From: a virus
Strand: one strand, 5' to 3'
Virus record (IMG/VR): IMGVR_UViG_3300027734_000015
Span: 1 to 34,216 of that record
DNA length: 34,216 nt
This document shows positions 26,140 to 34,190 of the stretch, in pieces. A program made the position numbers and the translations under genes. The notes beneath the pieces are model-generated. The model had not been told where the DNA came from and did not search any database. It worked only from the letters and a program-made list of their open reading frames with translations. Position 1 is the first letter of the stretch, and every line of letters begins with the position of its first letter.

Positions 26140-26360
26140 TGGTTGTAATAAGGCACTTTAAACTGCTGACCGTTAACCGTGACGTTCATAAAGCCAGCAG
26201 GTTTGCTAGGCAAAACGTAGTTACCCGCTGTCGCACTCGTCGAACTAGAAAAGTTCAGCAAGTTGATAAAGAATTGCTGCCATGTCCGTGTCGGGCGATT
26301 CGTCGTTTTATCGAGGAATTCCGACTGCGGATAAGGCTGTGTTTGTGAGGTTGGAAGCAT
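26136..26360 (-). CDS. small tail-operon protein
   Basis: This 74-aa protein has QSEFLDKTTNRPTRTWQQFFINLLNF, a pattern repeatedly seen in small proteins of podovirus tail operons, followed by a short beta part ending VPYYNQ. Position next to the gp10-like gene would suit a tail needle or accessory (gp26 place), but the length is far below gp26 (233 aa) and no long coiled coil is seen. Confidence 0.65.
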   Translation of the reverse strand: MLPTSQTQPYPQSEFLDKTTNRPTRTWQQFFINLLNFSSSTSATAGNYVLPSKPAGFMNVTVNGQQFKVPYYNQ

Positions 26361-28459
26361 TAGCTGTCCCCTGATGATGCTTTAAGGTTTGCCGACACAA
26401 TCACGCACTTGACGGGATCGGTTACCACGACTTCATAGATACGATCTCGCGCAGTACCAAGTCGCCGCCATATCGCACGGTTCTTGTATTTGCCGATCTG
26501 ACCTATGCTCGTCCAGTGTTCGTTTGACCAAGTAGAACCACCGTCGTTAGACCATCTCAGCATCGCTTGCGGATCGTCGCCTTGACCTGTAGATGCACCG
26601 ACACCGGGTTGGAATTGAATCTGCAACTCGTCAAAAAACTGGCGCTGGAAGTCTGAAACTAGATGCGGGCATCGTCGTAAGCGACGCACTTGCTGACCGT
26701 CATCAGTAAAAATGTCATTCTTCAATGCGTAAATTTTGCCGTTGTCATAGTCACCGACAAGCGTAAAGCCTTGAAAGAATGCAGAGCAATTCCCTCGGTG
26801 TCTTTGGTATTGGTTCTCATTCGTGCAATACAACCACTTGAACCATAGTCCGGTTGTTAGATCGTAAGCCCATGTAAGCTGCAAAGTCGGGAACGAAATT
26901 ACATAGACTTCGTGGCCTTCTAGTTGATATGACCACGCAATAGCATCAGTGATAACTTGACCTTCTAGCGAATTCTCAACTGCGTGCGTGCTGATCCGCT
27001 GCGGAACGTAACCATTCATCTGCACAATGACCGCATCGCCACGGTTATTTTTTGAGATGTAAGCGAACGAATTGCCAAGCCTAGCAATAGAGAATTTAGC
27101 TGCTATGCCATGCTGCGTAGACGTTCCCGGTATACGTTGAAACGGGAACGGAAAAGTTCCAGCATCAATCCACACCTCGCTAGAGACTTCACCAAGCAAA
27201 TAGACTTCTCTACGATCCACCATGATCGCCATCAAGTTGTCAGGCGATCCGTCTTTGCTGGCAAACGATAAAGCGGGCGAAAATGGCGATAGTGCAGACG
27301 TAGAACCAAACTGCTGCGTGTTCGGTCGGTTGTAAATAATGTAGTTGTCCACTACGTCCACCGACGTTGCGCCTGAGAATGCGCCATCCGTTGCAGGCAG
27401 AACCGTAAAGTTCAAAGCGTACATAGTCTGACTAGAAATCGTCTGCGATGGGCTGACGCTGTACGTACCTGTTCCACCCGTACCCGTACCGAGGGCGGTG
27501 ATGATGGTGTTTGCAGTAATGCCTGCGCCTTGGACTGTCTGACCGGGGTACAACGTTCCCGAAGTCGCTGTCACATTCAGCGAGTAGTTAGCCATTGTGA
27601 CCGTTCCGGTCGCGGATGCACCAGTACCACCTAGCGTGTCGGCAATCGTGAAAGTCGCAGTCGTGGTGTAGCCAGTGCCGGGGTTGGTGATCGTCACCGC
27701 AGTGACAACGCCTGCCACTTGCGTTACTGTTCCCGTTGCTGCAACGCCGCCCGATGGCGTGTTAAACGTAATGATCGGGCTGATGTAGTTAGCCCCGCCA
27801 TTAGTGACGGCAAATGACTGAACACCGCTTCCAATTGAGGCAGTCATCACAGAGGCTACAGCCGCCGAGTTCATGGTGCTGGATGCAACAGTCTGCGAGA
27901 TGTTGATGGTGTACGTACCCACCCCGCCCGAACCTGTGCCTAGCGCTGTAATTACTGTTTCCGCAGTTACACCTACCCCGAAAAGTTGCTGACCCGTCGT
28001 AATCGTTCCGCTGTTCATCAGGGTGACGGTTAAGGTTGTTCCTGAGACTGATCCTACAAACTGTGCGCCTAATGGCGTGGAAATTCTCCACGTGTAGCGA
28101 TACGTTCCATCTACGATGTACGCATTCAGCCCGTTGTCAGTAATGCCGACACGACCGGAGGACGAATTAAGCTGCCCGATAATGGTCGGGACGTAAGTCG
28201 AATCCATTGAGTAGACATAAGGGCCACACACCGCCAACAGGATTGAGCCGCCTGACAGGGTACGCATCCCCCTAACTTCTTGCTGGTTTCGCAGCACAAT
28301 CTGCGAGACTAGCCCCGGCGTCGGGTATAGAGCCACTACACCGCGCTCACCCGGCTGTTTAGTAGGGTCTACTTCGGGATACCAGTTAATGCACTCCTGT
28401 GCATCTTGGTAGATGCTAGGTGCTTCGTAACTAGCCCCTACAAATCCGAAATCCGGCAT
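26360..28459 (-). CDS. packaged-DNA stabilisation protein, P22 gp10-like, with inserted beta domains
   Basis: In this 699-aa protein the N-terminal 130 residues (GASYEAPSIYQDAQECINWYPE, YPTPGL) and the part after about 352 (DNYIIYNRPN, FQRIPGTSTQHGI, WAYDLTTGLWFKW) match P22 gp10, which plugs the tail channel with gp4 and gp26. P22 gp10 is 472 aa; the extra length is an insert at about 132-352. The insert has two copies of a GTYTxNxSQT beta domain (134-198, 292-350) around a GTGYTTTATF-type domain. A related domain sits in the gp4-like protein upstream. Confidence 0.88.
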   Translation of the reverse strand: MPDFGFVGASYEAPSIYQDAQECINWYPEVDPTKQPGERGVVALYPTPGLVSQIVLRNQQEVRGMRTLSGGSILLAVCGPYVYSMDSTYVPTIIGQLNSSSGRVGITDNGLNAYIVDGTYRYTWRISTPLGAQFVGSVSGTTLTVTLMNSGTITTGQQLFGVGVTAETVITALGTGSGGVGTYTINISQTVASSTMNSAAVASVMTASIGSGVQSFAVTNGGANYISPIITFNTPSGGVAATGTVTQVAGVVTAVTITNPGTGYTTTATFTIADTLGGTGASATGTVTMANYSLNVTATSGTLYPGQTVQGAGITANTIITALGTGTGGTGTYSVSPSQTISSQTMYALNFTVLPATDGAFSGATSVDVVDNYIIYNRPNTQQFGSTSALSPFSPALSFASKDGSPDNLMAIMVDRREVYLLGEVSSEVWIDAGTFPFPFQRIPGTSTQHGIAAKFSIARLGNSFAYISKNNRGDAVIVQMNGYVPQRISTHAVENSLEGQVITDAIAWSYQLEGHEVYVISFPTLQLTWAYDLTTGLWFKWLYCTNENQYQRHRGNCSAFFQGFTLVGDYDNGKIYALKNDIFTDDGQQVRRLRRCPHLVSDFQRQFFDELQIQFQPGVGASTGQGDDPQAMLRWSNDGGSTWSNEHWTSIGQIGKYKNRAIWRRLGTARDRIYEVVVTDPVKCVIVSANLKASSGDS
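27404..28066. repeat. inserted beta-domain cassette in the gp10-like gene
   Basis: Codons about 132-352 of the gp10-like gene. Copy 1 reads VGSVSGTTLTVTLMNSGTI then TALGTGSGGVGTYTI; copy 2 reads LNVTATSGTLYPGQTVQG then TALGTGTGGTGTYSV. Related bases also occur at 28994-29209. Confidence 0.8.
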
Positions 28460-28462
28460 TTC

Positions 28463-29434
28463 TTACCTCATAAACCCGCCGGACAATATCCAGCCCGCGT
28501 CCTTCATCTTGCCAACAAGGAGGGAATCCGGATATCTCGCAGCTTGGGTCGGTCGCATATTCGTGCGTTTGATCGTCGCTTTGCCCTGTGCGGCATAAGC
28601 ATTAATCATCGTGATTTGAGTCGTTGAGGCTTTGCCATACATCGGCATAAGACGTTCGGCAAGATTCCACCGCAGCGCCATGCTGTAGCCTTGCGGTAGG
28701 GCTATCGTGTCGTACATCGTCTGATAGCGGGCAAATACCGTATCCGCAAACAGGTGCATCTCGCCCTGTGCAGGGTTAGGCCATACGTAAATCGTACCTA
28801 GCTGTTCACCCGGCATATAGTAAAGCGCTTTAGGCCACGGCCCGTTAAGGCTTTTCAGTCCAATTTGCTCATATTCTTCGACGTTCAAAACGCCCACAGG
28901 GTAGTCCAAACCACCGTTATAGATGGGCACACCGTTGCTAGTGGTAGTGACGCGAACGAAAGCAGAATTGATCGCTAGAGGGCGCTGATAGTAAGCCGAT
29001 AGCGTGGTGCTGGAGACAGTCTGCGAGACATTGACTGTGTACGTACCAGCCTCGTTGATGTTGCCGCCTGCGCCCGAATTAAAACCTGTGATGGTCGTTC
29101 CCGCAGTGACTCCTGTACCGCTAAGAGTCTGCCCGATAGCCACCGCACCGGCAGATATAGATGTGATCGTCAGAGTAGTCCCTGAGATTGAGCCAATGAA
29201 CGTCGCGCCAATCTGACCACCCGGCCCGATTGTGTATTGGATTTGGTTCTGCACTACAGGGAAGATAATCTCGGTCTTGTAAAACACCATCATCTGCTCG
29301 TTTGACCATTGATCCACTAGGTCGTTGAGCATATCGAATGCGTCCTGCGCGGCATCCGCTGTTGGCGTTTCGCCCGCTTCTAGCGCACCTATGTCTTTCA
29401 AGGCGCGACTAATAATGTCAATCGGTTGAGCCAT
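28463..29434 (-). CDS. head-completion/tail accessory factor, P22 gp4-like, with inserted beta domain
   Basis: In this 323-aa protein the N-terminal 70 residues (IDIISRALKDIGALEAGETPTADAAQDAFDMLNDLVDQW) and the part after residue 148 (PLAINSAFVRV, GLDYPVGVLNVEEYEQIGLKSLNGPWPKALYY) match P22 gp4, which joins portal and tail hub. P22 gp4 is 166 aa. Here residues 76-147 are an insert of the same beta domain found twice in the gp10-like protein (GSISGTTLTITSISAGAV, GTYTVNVSQTV). AAGGA precedes the ATG. Confidence 0.88.
   Translation of the reverse strand: MAQPIDIISRALKDIGALEAGETPTADAAQDAFDMLNDLVDQWSNEQMMVFYKTEIIFPVVQNQIQYTIGPGGQIGATFIGSISGTTLTITSISAGAVAIGQTLSGTGVTAGTTITGFNSGAGGNINEAGTYTVNVSQTVSSTTLSAYYQRPLAINSAFVRVTTTSNGVPIYNGGLDYPVGVLNVEEYEQIGLKSLNGPWPKALYYMPGEQLGTIYVWPNPAQGEMHLFADTVFARYQTMYDTIALPQGYSMALRWNLAERLMPMYGKASTTQITMINAYAAQGKATIKRTNMRPTQAARYPDSLLVGKMKDAGWILSGGFMR
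28994..29209. repeat. inserted beta-domain cassette in the gp4-like gene
   Basis: Codons 76-147 of the gp4-like gene. The protein and base sequence are close to the first copy in the gp10-like gene (for example the stretch coding GTYTVNVSQTV compared with GTYTINISQTV). Confidence 0.8.
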
Positions 29435-30294: not shown

Positions 30295-32823
30295 TTAAGC
30301 AAACGATACGGTTTCGCTAGTTGTTGATGTTGCGGTGACAGTATAAATCTTGTAGCCGCCGCTAGTCGTGGAAGTCTGCGTTACGCCACCGGAGAATGTT
30401 GCGGTGTAGGTGTCAGGTATTTTGATGATGACTACGCCTGATCCACCTGCGCCGCCTACCGTGTAAGTTCCAAACGAACTATTGACAGACCATCCACCAC
30501 CGCCACCGCCGCCAGTATTGGCTGTCCCCGCGTAACCTATGTTACCGCTGTTGCCGCCAGCACCACCACCTCCTGCACCGCCGACTGCGCTTGTTCCATT
30601 GTCAGCAACTCCACCACCACCGCCGCCAGCGTAAGTCACGGACGATCCGCTAATGCTTGATGCCGTTCCTGCGCCACCCGCGCCGGGGTTTGATCCTGAT
30701 CGAGAACCACCAGTAGCGCCTGACGCACCGCCACCACCGCCACCTGCTCCGGGATATGGACTGGAATTAGAACTTCCACCACCGTTTGCGCCTTGGGATG
30801 GAGATGTGCTTGGCGTGTTTCCTGTGCCACCTGTGCCGGAAATACGTGATGCGCCGCCACCTGACCCGCCATTGCCTCCAACGCCTGTTCCATCGTTGTC
30901 GCCACCAAGACCGCCGCCAGCAGATGTGATTGCAGCAAAAACGCTGTTATTGCCAGCAGTTGATCTAGTTGGGCTAGACGCTCCCACCCCGCCAGCGCCC
31001 ACAGTAACAGTCGTGGCAACGCCTAATGAAACTCGCAAACCTGTGGCGGTACGCATACCGCCGCCACCGCCACCGCCGCCGCCAAAGTCGCCACCACCAC
31101 CACCGCCCGCAACAACAAGATAATCAACGGGCAAAGTATTTTTAAACGTAACCGTCTCGCTGCCAGTGCTAGTCGCTGTCACCGTCCAGATGTTGTAGCC
31201 ACCTGATGTTGTCAGGCTAGAAGTAACACCACCGGAAAACACTGCGCCAATGCTGTCGATTGTTCTGAGGATGACTACGCCGCTACCGCCTGCCGCGCCC
31301 CAAGAATTGCTAGGCATACCACCGCCGCCGCCACCCGTGTTTGCAGTTCCCGCAACGGCTGCGGTTACAAGGTTGACACCACCTGCGCCGCCACCACCCG
31401 TCCCGCCCGTTGAGCGCGTTCCCGGTACACCTGCCACACCGCCACCGCCACCGCCTGCATAGGTAACGCTAGACCCCGAAATGCTAGATGCCGAGCCATT
31501 GCCTCCGTTGCCGCCGACACCTGAAGCGTTGCCGCCACCTACTGCGCCCGCACCGCCACCGCCCGAGCCGCTGTTCTGAGAATTCAGCGTCGCGCCGCCA
31601 TCATTGCCTTGTCCCGATATTCCTGTGCCGGGATAAGTTTGAGCACCGCCGTTTTGACCGCCGCCACCGCCCGAGCCGCCATTTGACCCGTCTTTAACCG
31701 CAGCGCCATCACTCGCGCCACCGCCCCCGCCGGTTGAAGTAATGGACGAAAAAACAGAGTTTGATCCGTTTACGCCTTTGGCTGATGTGCCTCCACTACC
31801 TGCACCGCCTGCGCCAACTGTGACCGTGTAGCTTGTGCCGAATACTATGGCAAGTCCATTAGCATTTCTAAAACCACCTGCGCCGCCACCGCCCCAACTG
31901 CCGCCTCCACCACCACCTGCAACTACCAAGTAATCAACGCCGGGCGAAGTCGAGAACGTCACCGTCTCCGAAGTCGTCGAAGTCGCTGTGACTGAATAAA
32001 TGTTGTAGCCGCTAACTGCGCTGCTGTATGTATAGGTCACGCCGCTTGAGAATGTGGCATAGACAGTCGATGGCACTTTGATGATGACAATGCCTGACCC
32101 GCCATTGCCGCCAGCGTATTCTGCGCCGCCAGCCCCGCCGCCACCGCCGCCGCCAAAGTTTGCGGTTGCATTACCACCTACGGTTGTGCTTGATCCATTG
32201 CCAGCGTTCGTGCCGCCTGTGCCGCCCGTGCCTGTCGGACTACCCGTATTAGTACCCCCGCCACCGCCGCCTGAATACGATTGCGAAGTGCCTGATATGG
32301 ATGAAGTTGATGCCGCGCCACCTGCTCCACCCGTTAAACTTGCGCCGTTTGCACCTGCCCCCCCTGCCCCACCTCCACCTCCACCGGGATAAGGTGCGGT
32401 ATTAAGACCGTTACCGCCGTTGTTGCCGTAGTTTGCGCCCGTGCCGCCAGTTCCTGCGTAGCCACCAGCATTGACCGCCCCGCCGCCACCTGACGCATTT
32501 GCAGACGAAGTGCCGTTTGCCGTTCCACCGGCAGTTACCGAGCCACCTCCACCACCCCCGTCAGATGTAATGCTGCTAAATACAGACGAACTGCCATCCG
32601 CGCCGTTTACAGTTCTAACCGTTGACCCAGCACCGCCAGCGCCTACTGTAACCGTGTATGCAGTGGTGTAAGACAAAGTTTGTGATGTAAGTGAACGAAA
32701 ACCGCCACCACCACCGCCGCCCCCATAGGCTTTGCCGCCGCCACCGCCGCCAGCGACGACAAGGTAATCAACAGTAATTCCCGCAGCACCACCGGCTAGG
32801 AAAAAGTTTTTAGCTGCAAACAT
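30295..32823 (-). CDS. glycine-rich modular adhesin/tail fibre
   Basis: The 842-aa product starts MFAAKNFFLAGGAAG at 32823 (the ATG overlaps the stop of the fibre gene as TAATG; the upstream frame extension is rejected). It has three modules of about 270 residues. Each opens with VDYLVVAGGGGGG, then an aromatic/Gly stretch, YTVTVGAGGAGS, a long Gly/Ser/Asn part, and ends with VTATSTTSETVTF. Gly-rich triplets like these form packed polyglycine-II helices in the S16 adhesin gp38. Receptor binding is the likely task. Confidence 0.85.
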   Translation of the reverse strand: MFAAKNFFLAGGAAGITVDYLVVAGGGGGGKAYGGGGGGGGFRSLTSQTLSYTTAYTVTVGAGGAGSTVRTVNGADGSSSVFSSITSDGGGGGGSVTAGGTANGTSSANASGGGGAVNAGGYAGTGGTGANYGNNGGNGLNTAPYPGGGGGGAGGAGANGASLTGGAGGAASTSSISGTSQSYSGGGGGGTNTGSPTGTGGTGGTNAGNGSSTTVGGNATANFGGGGGGGAGGAEYAGGNGGSGIVIIKVPSTVYATFSSGVTYTYSSAVSGYNIYSVTATSTTSETVTFSTSPGVDYLVVAGGGGGGSWGGGGAGGFRNANGLAIVFGTSYTVTVGAGGAGSGGTSAKGVNGSNSVFSSITSTGGGGGASDGAAVKDGSNGGSGGGGGQNGGAQTYPGTGISGQGNDGGATLNSQNSGSGGGGAGAVGGGNASGVGGNGGNGSASSISGSSVTYAGGGGGGVAGVPGTRSTGGTGGGGAGGVNLVTAAVAGTANTGGGGGGMPSNSWGAAGGSGVVILRTIDSIGAVFSGGVTSSLTTSGGYNIWTVTATSTGSETVTFKNTLPVDYLVVAGGGGGGDFGGGGGGGGGMRTATGLRVSLGVATTVTVGAGGVGASSPTRSTAGNNSVFAAITSAGGGLGGDNDGTGVGGNGGSGGGASRISGTGGTGNTPSTSPSQGANGGGSSNSSPYPGAGGGGGGASGATGGSRSGSNPGAGGAGTASSISGSSVTYAGGGGGGVADNGTSAVGGAGGGGAGGNSGNIGYAGTANTGGGGGGGWSVNSSFGTYTVGGAGGSGVVIIKIPDTYTATFSGGVTQTSTTSGGYKIYTVTATSTTSETVSFA

Positions 32824-34190
32824 TACGGTGTATATCCCTGTGCAATCGAACCGTACCAGTTCGTTCCATCGCTGATAAACGTCAGAATGTCCATCTTGCC
32901 CGCAGTAGCGGTAATCGTAGGCGCACCCGAAGTGCCCCACTGCACGCTAGTAAACGTCGCAGTACCATTGCCCGTAGATGCAGCTTGTTTCAGCAACAGC
33001 ACAAAAGACTTGCCAGCAGTCGCAGTCGGCATCGTGAACGTGCAAGCCGTCGAAGCCGTCAGGGTTGCAGTTTGCACAGTACCGTTAGTCAGTGACAGCG
33101 TGTTTGACGTTGTTACCGTACCAATGGCGACAACGCTTTCGACGTAGTTCGTTACTGTCGGGTTGTTGATGATTGGGCTAGTCAGTCCCGTAACCGTCAA
33201 ATAGCCGGTCGAAGGATTGAAACTCAACCGCGTGGAACTGGTGTTTTCAGCCGAAATCGTGCCGCTAGTGGCGCTCGTAAACAGCAGATAGCGCGAAGCG
33301 TTGGTCGTTGTATCGTCGGTGATCGTGATCGCAGAGGTCGGTGTATCCCATACTGGCGTACCAGCACCGGCAGACTTTAGGAATTGTCCCGAAGTGCCCG
33401 CTGCTGTAAAAGCATAGGCAGTACCGCTACCGTAAGCCACCGCACCTGCTGTCGGGGTAGCAGTTCCCGCCGTACCACCAAGGTTCACAGCAACAGGGTT
33501 AGCAAGAGTAAAAGCTGAACCGACAAGCGTAAGGCCAGTCCCTGCGGTATACGACGCACCGCCTGAGAACTGCGACCAGTTCATCGCGGTGACACCGATA
33601 GTCCCACCAGCGTTAGCCGTACAAACCCACCCCGTATCGCCTTGACTGCTGCCTTGCTCCAAGAACGTAAACGCGCCGGGGACTTCCGACCACGTATCCA
33701 TATCGGTCGAGCGTGTCCATGCACCACTTGCCACAACATAGATGCCGTTTTCTGACGCGGTGCTTTGATTCTTGACTAGACACCTATCGCCAGCAATCAG
33801 CGCGATGCCATCAACCGTTTGCGTACCTGACAGCGTGATGTTGACAGTCGTTCCAGCAATACACGAACCTTTAACGTCAAGACCCGTCACCAACGCATCG
33901 ACATAGCTTTTATTTACTATGTCATTCCCCGTTGAGGGCGTGGTTGAGATCGTTCCCGTCGTGGTAGCGATGTTTGTAAATACGCCGGTTGAGGGAACTG
34001 TAGCGCCAATCGTTGCGCCGTTAATCGTGCCGCTAGTGATAGATGCAGCGCCACTAGCACCAACGGTGAAGTACGTGCCAGCAGGCCCAACAAACGTCAC
34101 AAACCCTTGCGTGTCTGTGAATATCCCCTGCACTGGGACGATGTTTATCGTCTGCGTGCTTGCTGTTTCGTTTTGCAGTATTTGAGACAT
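32823..34190 (-). CDS. tail fibre protein
   Basis: In this 455-aa protein the N-terminal 100 residues (MSQILQNETASTQTINIV, then beta-rich) are probably the virion anchor. At about 130-215 it has GDRCLVKNQSTASENGIYVV, WTRSTDMDTWSEVPGAF and GDTGWVC, the central domain of many fibre proteins. The end (LLLKQAASTGNGTATFTSVQW, FISDGTNWYGSIAQ) matches a common fibre C-terminus. It precedes the Gly-rich adhesin, which may sit on its tip. Its start lies in the terminal repeat. Confidence 0.85.
   Translation of the reverse strand: MSQILQNETASTQTINIVPVQGIFTDTQGFVTFVGPAGTYFTVGASGAASITSGTINGATIGATVPSTGVFTNIATTTGTISTTPSTGNDIVNKSYVDALVTGLDVKGSCIAGTTVNITLSGTQTVDGIALIAGDRCLVKNQSTASENGIYVVASGAWTRSTDMDTWSEVPGAFTFLEQGSSQGDTGWVCTANAGGTIGVTAMNWSQFSGGASYTAGTGLTLVGSAFTLANPVAVNLGGTAGTATPTAGAVAYGSGTAYAFTAAGTSGQFLKSAGAGTPVWDTPTSAITITDDTTTNASRYLLFTSATSGTISAENTSSTRLSFNPSTGYLTVTGLTSPIINNPTVTNYVESVVAIGTVTTSNTLSLTNGTVQTATLTASTACTFTMPTATAGKSFVLLLKQAASTGNGTATFTSVQWGTSGAPTITATAGKMDILTFISDGTNWYGSIAQGYTP

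What the first reader, a model, noticed from the sequence alone, without database searches (positions are those of the whole stretch)
27404..29209. Same beta-domain cassette inserted in two neighbouring tail-hub proteins
Seen: the gp4-like protein carries one copy (residues 76-147), and the gp10-like protein two copies with a different domain between them (134-198, 204-290, 292-350), although P22 gp4 and gp10 have none. The core reads GTYTxNxSQT in each. Inference: the inserts probably form loops on the outside of the tail hub, perhaps as decoration or weak glycan binding, and spread between neighbours by recombination.
Basis: partly seen in the sequence, partly recalled or inferred. Interest (0 to 1): 0.7.

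Follow-up and report, generated by a model that had tools for sequence, protein, structure and literature searches.

The report
Surface domain cassette in phage tail-hub
A small all-beta protein module that freshwater phages insert into many different particle proteins sits in two neighbouring tail-hub proteins of this phage, probably on the outside of the tail, and in one of them it has a further module built into its own loop.

Summary
Confirmed: the gp4-like adaptor holds one copy and the gp10-like nozzle protein two copies of the same ~73-aa beta domain ("A"). Corrected: the "different domain between" the nozzle copies (B) looks nested in the first hairpin of the second copy; other relatives carry domain C there, or D in another loop. 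Nozzle inserts come in steps (about 6, 146, 225, 283, 320, 409 aa) at one site; adaptor inserts measure 76-84 or about 150 aa. On a tree of nozzle cores the A pair entered once, into a lineage whose adaptor probably already had A. Spread between the neighbouring genes is not supported: copies share 54-58% of bases, same-genome pairs are no more alike than pairs from different genomes, and most copies are nearest to A domains of unrelated proteins. A recurs in a tail sheath, cement, minor capsid, neck terminator and fibre proteins, with no Pfam or NCBIfam model and no PDB sequence match. The nozzle site lies near propeller blades 2/3, where SU10 and phicrAss001 carry inserted Ig-like domains, away from the channel, so the outward reading is likely but untested. 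Best reading: an unnamed promiscuous virion-surface domain used as a nestable cassette. Glycan binding is only inference.

The parts
28463..29434 (-). gp4-like head-to-tail adaptor, 323 aa (dodecamer in homologues)
   Evidence: P22 gp4 8u10_m Z 15.4, 110 aligned, 2.4 A; SU10_adaptor Pfam 1.9e-5, just under its cut-off
28991..29212 (-). domain A copy in the adaptor, residues ~75-148, between strand 66-69 and strand 154-166 of the model, with the gp4-specific loop GAGGNINE
26360..28459 (-). gp10-like nozzle / stabilisation protein, 699 aa, seven-bladed propeller (hexamer in homologues)
   Evidence: P22 gp10 8eap_D Z 34.8, 431 aligned, 3.4 A
27872..28069 (-). domain A copy 1 in the nozzle protein, residues 131-196 (profile match runs to 202)
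27833..27871 (-). first strand of domain A copy 2, residues 197-209 (NSAAVASVMTASI), cut off from the rest of the copy by B
   Evidence: 12.9 bits to the strand-1 profile of relatives that lack B
27590..27832 (-). domain B, residues ~210-290, nested in the first hairpin of A copy 2
   Evidence: model confidence only 54-73 over most of it
27404..27589 (-). rest of domain A copy 2, residues 291-352, ending TMYALNFT at the return to the propeller

Best explanation
Domain A is an uncatalogued, promiscuous, small all-beta surface module of tailed-phage particle proteins, here inserted into outer loops of two stacked tail-hub rings. SHOWN (sequence): one A in the adaptor and an A pair in the nozzle protein, each at one fixed site; A occurs in unrelated virion proteins; the nozzle pair was gained once on the core tree, and its second member later took up further domains (B, C or D) in its own loops. 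INFERRED: with the 12 adaptors and 6 nozzles of homologous tails the particle would show 24 A domains and 6 B domains in two girdles outside the hub, none in the channel. The nozzle cassette would work like the inserted nozzle domains of SU10 and the IG domains of phicrAss001: wrapping the hub, bracing fibres and needle, and making first, weak, many-point contact with the cell surface or surrounding polymers. Domains probably arrive by illegitimate or homology-assisted recombination from a shared pool of virion genes rather than from the gene next door.
For: Three-copy match. Fixed sites: A outside the site in 0 of 133 full gp10 ORFs and 0 of 241 gp4 ORFs, loci not made distinct by contig. Stepwise insert lengths and domain strings. 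Core tree of 87 distinct gp10 cores: no-insert rows are one side of a branch (support 92), the B form one side (99), 9 changes over six forms against 47.4 in shuffles. Insert about doubled between cores 97.9% identical. 0 of 112 loci hold A in gp10 without A in gp4, while 15 hold it in gp4 alone. Promiscuity: of 50 other ORFs with A from a motif scan, 50 match PHROG 21413 and 46 PHROG 38233, and one to six each match sheath, cement, minor capsid, terminator, collar and PHROG 3287 families; in four PHROG 3287 proteins A sits at different places. Folds and the SU10 and phicrAss001 papers.
Against: No coordinates were available, so the outward direction is argued from site and length tolerance only. 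The model of B is poor. No binding or stability assay exists. The adaptor A is inherited with ordinary divergence in its clade, so it could be a fixed structural part rather than an exchangeable adhesin. The relative sample is biased to near relatives (best 80 per scan). A surface role in other proteins is itself inferred from family names.
Confidence: 0.6

Rival explanations
1. Structural cement: A strengthens the portal-adaptor-nozzle stack or the docking of fibres, with no contact to the host. Its nearest solved shape is a chain from the Arthrobacter phage Bridgette entry.
For: The gp4 insert aligns to 8eci_1 (Z 6.5, 66 residues, 2.6 A, 29% identity; Foldseek probability 0.98 but E 0.1). 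A is fused to a Phage_cement protein (L342). In the gp4 model the insert lies among the strands between helix 2 and helix 3, where by my reading T7-like adaptors have the fibre dock domain that P22 lacks (PMC9509320).
Against: Z under 8 may be only a common arrangement, and EF-Tu-domain-2-like barrels score the same. Length varies greatly between near-identical cores, unusual for a load-bearing interface. I did not learn what protein the 8eci chain is.
Confidence: 0.2
2. One reading: the cassette was copied between the two neighbouring genes by recombination.
For: The genes are adjacent (3-base gap); a 39-base stretch is 82% identical between gp4 A and gp10 A1. In 50 of 166 distinct loci the gap between the genes exceeds 250 bases; by simple motif 26 look HNH-like, 7 GIY-YIG-like and 20 fibre-like (overlapping counts); Pfam finds endonuclease-associated families in 5 of 10 such proteins scanned. 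Such genes could raise local recombination.
Against: Base identity 54-58% between copies, identical codons not far above codon-usage expectation (15 vs 11.6, 12 vs 8.3, 12 vs 9.9). Same-genome gp4-gp10 pairs are no closer than cross-genome pairs (0.494 vs 0.485; 130 loci). The gp4 loop is in 158 of 168 gp4 first copies and in 0 of 381 copies of the four other classes tested.
Confidence: 0.08
3. Neutral accretion: the domains are tolerated passengers in a permissive loop, with no selected role.
For: Large length differences between near-identical cores; many unrelated host proteins and sites.
Against: The GTYT...SQT core is kept across unrelated proteins; once gained, the A pair shows no loss on the core tree; small phage genomes tend to shed useless DNA (general knowledge).
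Confidence: 0.12

Closest known systems
SU10 nozzle protein gp17 with four inserted nozzle domains (PMC9509320; section 12 and passages read)
   Same: gp10-class seven-bladed propeller with a string of small beta domains inserted at blades 2/3, away from the channel; structural match to our model Z 21.8
   Different: SU10 domains are called Ig-like in the paper; no sequence link to A was tested. The tail elongation mechanism is unknown for our phage.
phicrAss001 muzzle gp44, IG1/IG2 and crass domain (PMC10172136; passages read)
   Same: IG1 between blades 2 and 3, IG2 in blade 3, and further polypeptide nested in loops of IG2: the same nested logic; Z 23.6
   Different: Large unique crass fold and C2-like IG domains. 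Our nested parts are small recurrent modules.
Ig-like domains on phages (Fraser et al. 2006; seen only as a citation in PMC10684548, otherwise recalled)
   Same: Promiscuous small beta domains added to many virion surface proteins
   Different: A has no convincing match to a Pfam Ig family (Big_6 E 0.05 and Big_1 E 0.19, one of 68 members each)
PHROG 21413 / PHROG 38233 (tail fiber protein)
   Same: Their models contain A: 50 of 50 and 46 of 50 other-protein members match
   Different: They are whole-protein clusters, not a named domain; function unknown or 'tail fiber'
P22 gp4 / gp10
   Same: Core folds
   Different: No such inserts: the P22 gp10 chain of 471 residues aligns over 431, the P22 gp4 chain has about 150 residues

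Membership tests
P22 gp10-type nozzle / head closure Hc3 | sequence match to the family model | tested here: met
   phrog_578 E 2.9e-101
P22 gp10-type nozzle / head closure Hc3 | gp10 fold | tested here: met
   8eap_D Z 34.8, 431 aligned, 3.4 A
P22 gp4 / SU10-type adaptor | adaptor helix-bundle fold | tested here: met
   8u10_m Z 15.4, 110 aligned, 2.4 A; SU10_adaptor 25.6 bits vs cut-off 27
Phage Ig-like domains | match to an Ig-like family model | tested here: inconclusive
   Big_6 E 0.05 in 1 of 68, Big_1 E 0.19 in 1 of 68
Phage Ig-like domains | Ig beta-sandwich fold | tested here: inconclusive
   the insert was not folded and searched alone; the rows shown for the gp4 model are mostly whole adaptors
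Promiscuous virion-surface domain | present in several unrelated virion proteins | tested here: met
Promiscuous virion-surface domain | exposed on the particle | not testable with these tools
   no coordinates of assemblies; argued from site and length tolerance
SU10-like nozzle domains | inserted at propeller blades 2/3 | tested here: inconclusive
   strand count puts it in the blade 2 C-D hairpin or the blade 2/3 junction; no coordinates to settle it
Bridgette 8eci_1 chain relatives | sequence or fold relationship | tested here: inconclusive
   no sequence match of A profiles to a PDB chain (nothing, or nothing meaningful, up to E 10); structure Z 6.5 only

The most novel reading that the evidence does not exclude
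Domain A is a dedicated 'display scaffold': its hairpin tip (used by B and C) and its ITALG loop (used by D) are themselves acceptor sites, so a lineage of freshwater podophages grows and swaps host-contact parts on its nozzle by nesting domains inside domains, independent of tail fibres, giving a second adsorption surface on the hub.
Probability: 0.3. Interest if true: 0.68.

Novelty: new member of a known kind. Interest (0 to 1): 0.47.

Why it matters
A is common in IMG/VR viral contigs yet has no Pfam or NCBIfam model and no PDB sequence match, and searches with low-complexity filtering seem to miss it. Naming it would annotate many 'hypothetical' virion proteins. The nozzle series (none, AA, AA+D, AA+B, further copies) gives closely related phages that differ mainly in the cassette, which makes the open question of what such inserted domains do for short-tailed phages directly testable. 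[quoted passage not shown]

Tried and rejected
Recent copying between gp4 and gp10: tested three ways and not supported. Tandem copies with B lying between whole domains: the strand-1 profile of relatives matches 197-209 at 12.9 bits and nothing comparable just before residue 291, so nesting is preferred; the general A profile does stretch over 282-353, so some doubt stays. Frameshift between 32823-34190 and 30295-32940: a TAATG stop/start overlap explains it. A found elsewhere in this clade: in 12 IMG/VR records of 31.8-35.8 kb all listed matches lie in open frames of 324-350 or 636-808 aa, the sizes of gp4 and gp10 (the genes were not checked one by one). PBR31 gp4 has an insert of similar place and size, but its match to A is not significant (E 2.7 with Z set to 1000). 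Domain-alone tblastn in the phage collection found nothing or near nothing, most likely because of low-complexity filtering. PDB sequence searches with the domain or the PBR31 insert gave nothing useful. No Ig domain was named among the 50 rows shown for the gp4 model, which excludes nothing. No paper naming the domain was found; searches (PHROG numbers, 0 papers) and 104 cannot exclude one.

Full report
OBSERVATION. The window is a 34,216-base virus record with a P22-like set of genes on the minus strand: major head protein, scaffold, portal, terminase, and the two hub genes. The 323-aa protein at 28463-29434 is a gp4-type adaptor and the 699-aa protein at 26360-28459 a gp10-type nozzle protein. 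They share one ~73-aa domain, A, once in gp4 and twice in gp10. Among 428 window ORFs no other protein passes the inclusion threshold with the gp4 copy as query, although the window also holds a very Gly-rich 881-aa protein. The quoted motif fits two of the three copies; the third is GTYSVSPSQT.

THE INSERTS ARE REAL INSERTIONS. In MW202520 and MW202674 (gp4 76.0% and 72.8% identical over 99-100% of its length) gp4 has the domain at the same site, but gp10 passes straight across the site with no insert; in Rhodoferax phage P26218 both proteins lack it. In one search the 13 records H4-H16 match both sides of the gp4 insert over only 570-672 bases, too short to hold it. No sequence similarity of A to solved chains was found, and no Pfam or NCBIfam model covers it.

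SURVEY. Three scans of IMG/VR gave 238 loci (the best 80 per call, so near relatives are favoured). In one search, 241 ORFs hold both halves of gp4 and 224 both halves of gp10; many loci overlap on the same contig. After removing repeats, 169 gp4 proteins: 159 with one A, 8 with two, 2 with none by the profile (P26218; PBR31, which has another insert). 169 gp10: AA 72, AAA 53 by raw profile hits, none 27, ABA 10, AAAA 4, AAAAA 2, ABBA 1. Many raw AAA are in truth a second A split by another domain, D. With models for B, C and D, 133 full-length gp10 read: AA 42, A plus A-with-D 39, A plus A-with-B 24, none 23, with further copies 4, with two D 1. These 133 are the ORFs that passed length filters, from all loci held by then; the C-bearing ones seen (L035, L019, L020, L041) are not among them.

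NESTING. In relatives without B the second A begins NSA-x-V-x-x-V-x-T-x-SI-SGTTLTV without a break. In the window the same beginning stands at 197-209, then B runs to about 290, then the rest of A goes on at NYSLNV. B and C use the tip of the first hairpin; D uses the loop after ITALG. So A itself is an acceptor. The model of the nozzle protein is confident over A (about 80-96 per block of ten) and poor over B (54-73 over most of it).

HISTORY. A tree of 87 distinct gp10 cores, the insert left out: rows without insert form one side of a branch (support 92) together with the two outgroup phages; the B form is one side (99, starred); six forms need 9 changes against a shuffled mean of 47.4. AA is thus most simply gained once, then decorated. 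Late growth is visible: L159 (AA) and L142 (more copies) have cores 97.9% identical, L330 and L323 97.7%, L232 and L127 97.7%. In 112 loci with both genes scored, A in gp10 never occurs without A in gp4, while 15 have A in gp4 alone (loci not made distinct by contig). gp4 was therefore probably first.

NOT COPIED NEXT DOOR. Base identity between the three window copies is 54-58%, and identical codons at identical residues are not far above codon-usage expectation. Over 130 distinct loci the gp4-gp10 first-copy identity is 0.494 within a genome and 0.485 between genomes (128 loci for the last copy: 0.414 and 0.412). In one search a gp4-only loop occurs in 158 of 168 gp4 first copies, 0 of 14 gp4 second copies, 0 of 139 and 0 of 132 gp10 first and last copies and 0 of 96 in other proteins. 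The nearest copy of another class belongs to an unrelated protein for 120 of 168 gp4 first copies, 81 of 139 gp10 first and 117 of 132 gp10 last copies; 42 of 139 gp10 first copies are nearest to a gp4 first copy. 'Other' is a varied class, which favours it, and mean identity of gp10 first copies to gp4 (0.49) is about the same as to others (0.48). The tree of the domain has too few columns to resolve most forks (94 of 161 inner branches open), but places the classes as near-separate groups. An ancient transfer between the genes is not excluded.

PROMISCUITY. Of these 50, 50 match PHROG 21413 and 46 PHROG 38233; 6 match PHROG 3287 (virion structural), 3 a minor head protein, 1 tail sheath. Pfam gives XM1 minor capsid 2, cement 2, and one each of terminator, sheath, collar, Gly-rich. 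In the sheath protein L287, A is at 104-173, outside the sheath domains at 201-472; in cement L342 it follows the cement domain. In four PHROG 3287 proteins A sits near residues 490, 152, 235 and 227. A BFVD hit named HK97 major capsid protein also aligns over 96 columns at 41% identity (it was not checked that this is A).

WHERE IT SITS AND WHAT IT DOES. gp10 homologues have a seven-bladed propeller; [quoted passage not shown] In our model the insert lies between strands 120-125 and 351-354, by my count the blade 2 outer hairpin or the blade 2/3 junction. The adaptor A lies among the beta strands between helices 2 and 3, where I infer the fibre dock domain that T7, KP32 and SU10 have and P22 lacks. 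Hence the likely picture: two rings of A outside the hub, 12 + 12 per particle if the usual ring numbers hold. Contact with the host surface is the function I hold most likely, structural bracing next; neither was tested. The insert of the gp4 model resembles 8eci_1 (phage Bridgette; Z 6.5) and EF-Tu-like barrels (Z 6.4-6.7), too weak to name a fold.

LIMITS. Papers: PMC9509320 (section 12 and passages), PMC10172136, PMC10575957 and PMC10684548 (passages), PMC7241545 (outline and abstract); all others only as search listings. Blade geometry beyond these papers, ring numbers for this phage and the Fraser 2006 content are recalled or inferred.

Noticed in passing
between gp4 and gp10 genes in L002, L084, L103, L122, L137 and others; window gap is 3 bases: The gp4-gp10 junction is an insertion hot spot: 50 of 166 distinct loci have more than 250 bases there, holding HNH-type or NUMOD3/GIY-YIG-like homing-endonuclease genes or fibre-like ORFs.
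   Followed up: partly
L019, L020, L023, L035, L041 (gp10 inserts): Domain C (VAITGTAGQFSC...GTPTGLTY), in one to about three copies nested in the second A; unnamed recurrent module.
   Followed up: partly
L061, L186, L188, L220 and others; 39 of 133 full gp10 by profile: Domain D (GYAVNDTVTVLGG...) nested after ITALG in the second A.
   Followed up: partly
L246 4782-7993: A Methylococcales MAG contig of 34 kb carries gp4 with A and gp10 with several A: a lead to the host, but a phage contig may have been binned there by chance.
   Followed up: no
window 30295-32940: The listed GTG start of the Gly-rich protein is probably false: an ATG at 32823 overlaps the stop of the upstream gene (TAATG), so translation is likely coupled.
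   Followed up: yes
L001 6976-8562 (MW202520 gp10): A separate insertion of about 35 aa in another loop near the C-terminus of gp10, absent from the other four gp10 compared.
   Followed up: no
MW202520 and MW202674 (L001, L002): Their gp4-like adaptors are annotated 'portal protein', which looks like a misannotation.
   Followed up: no
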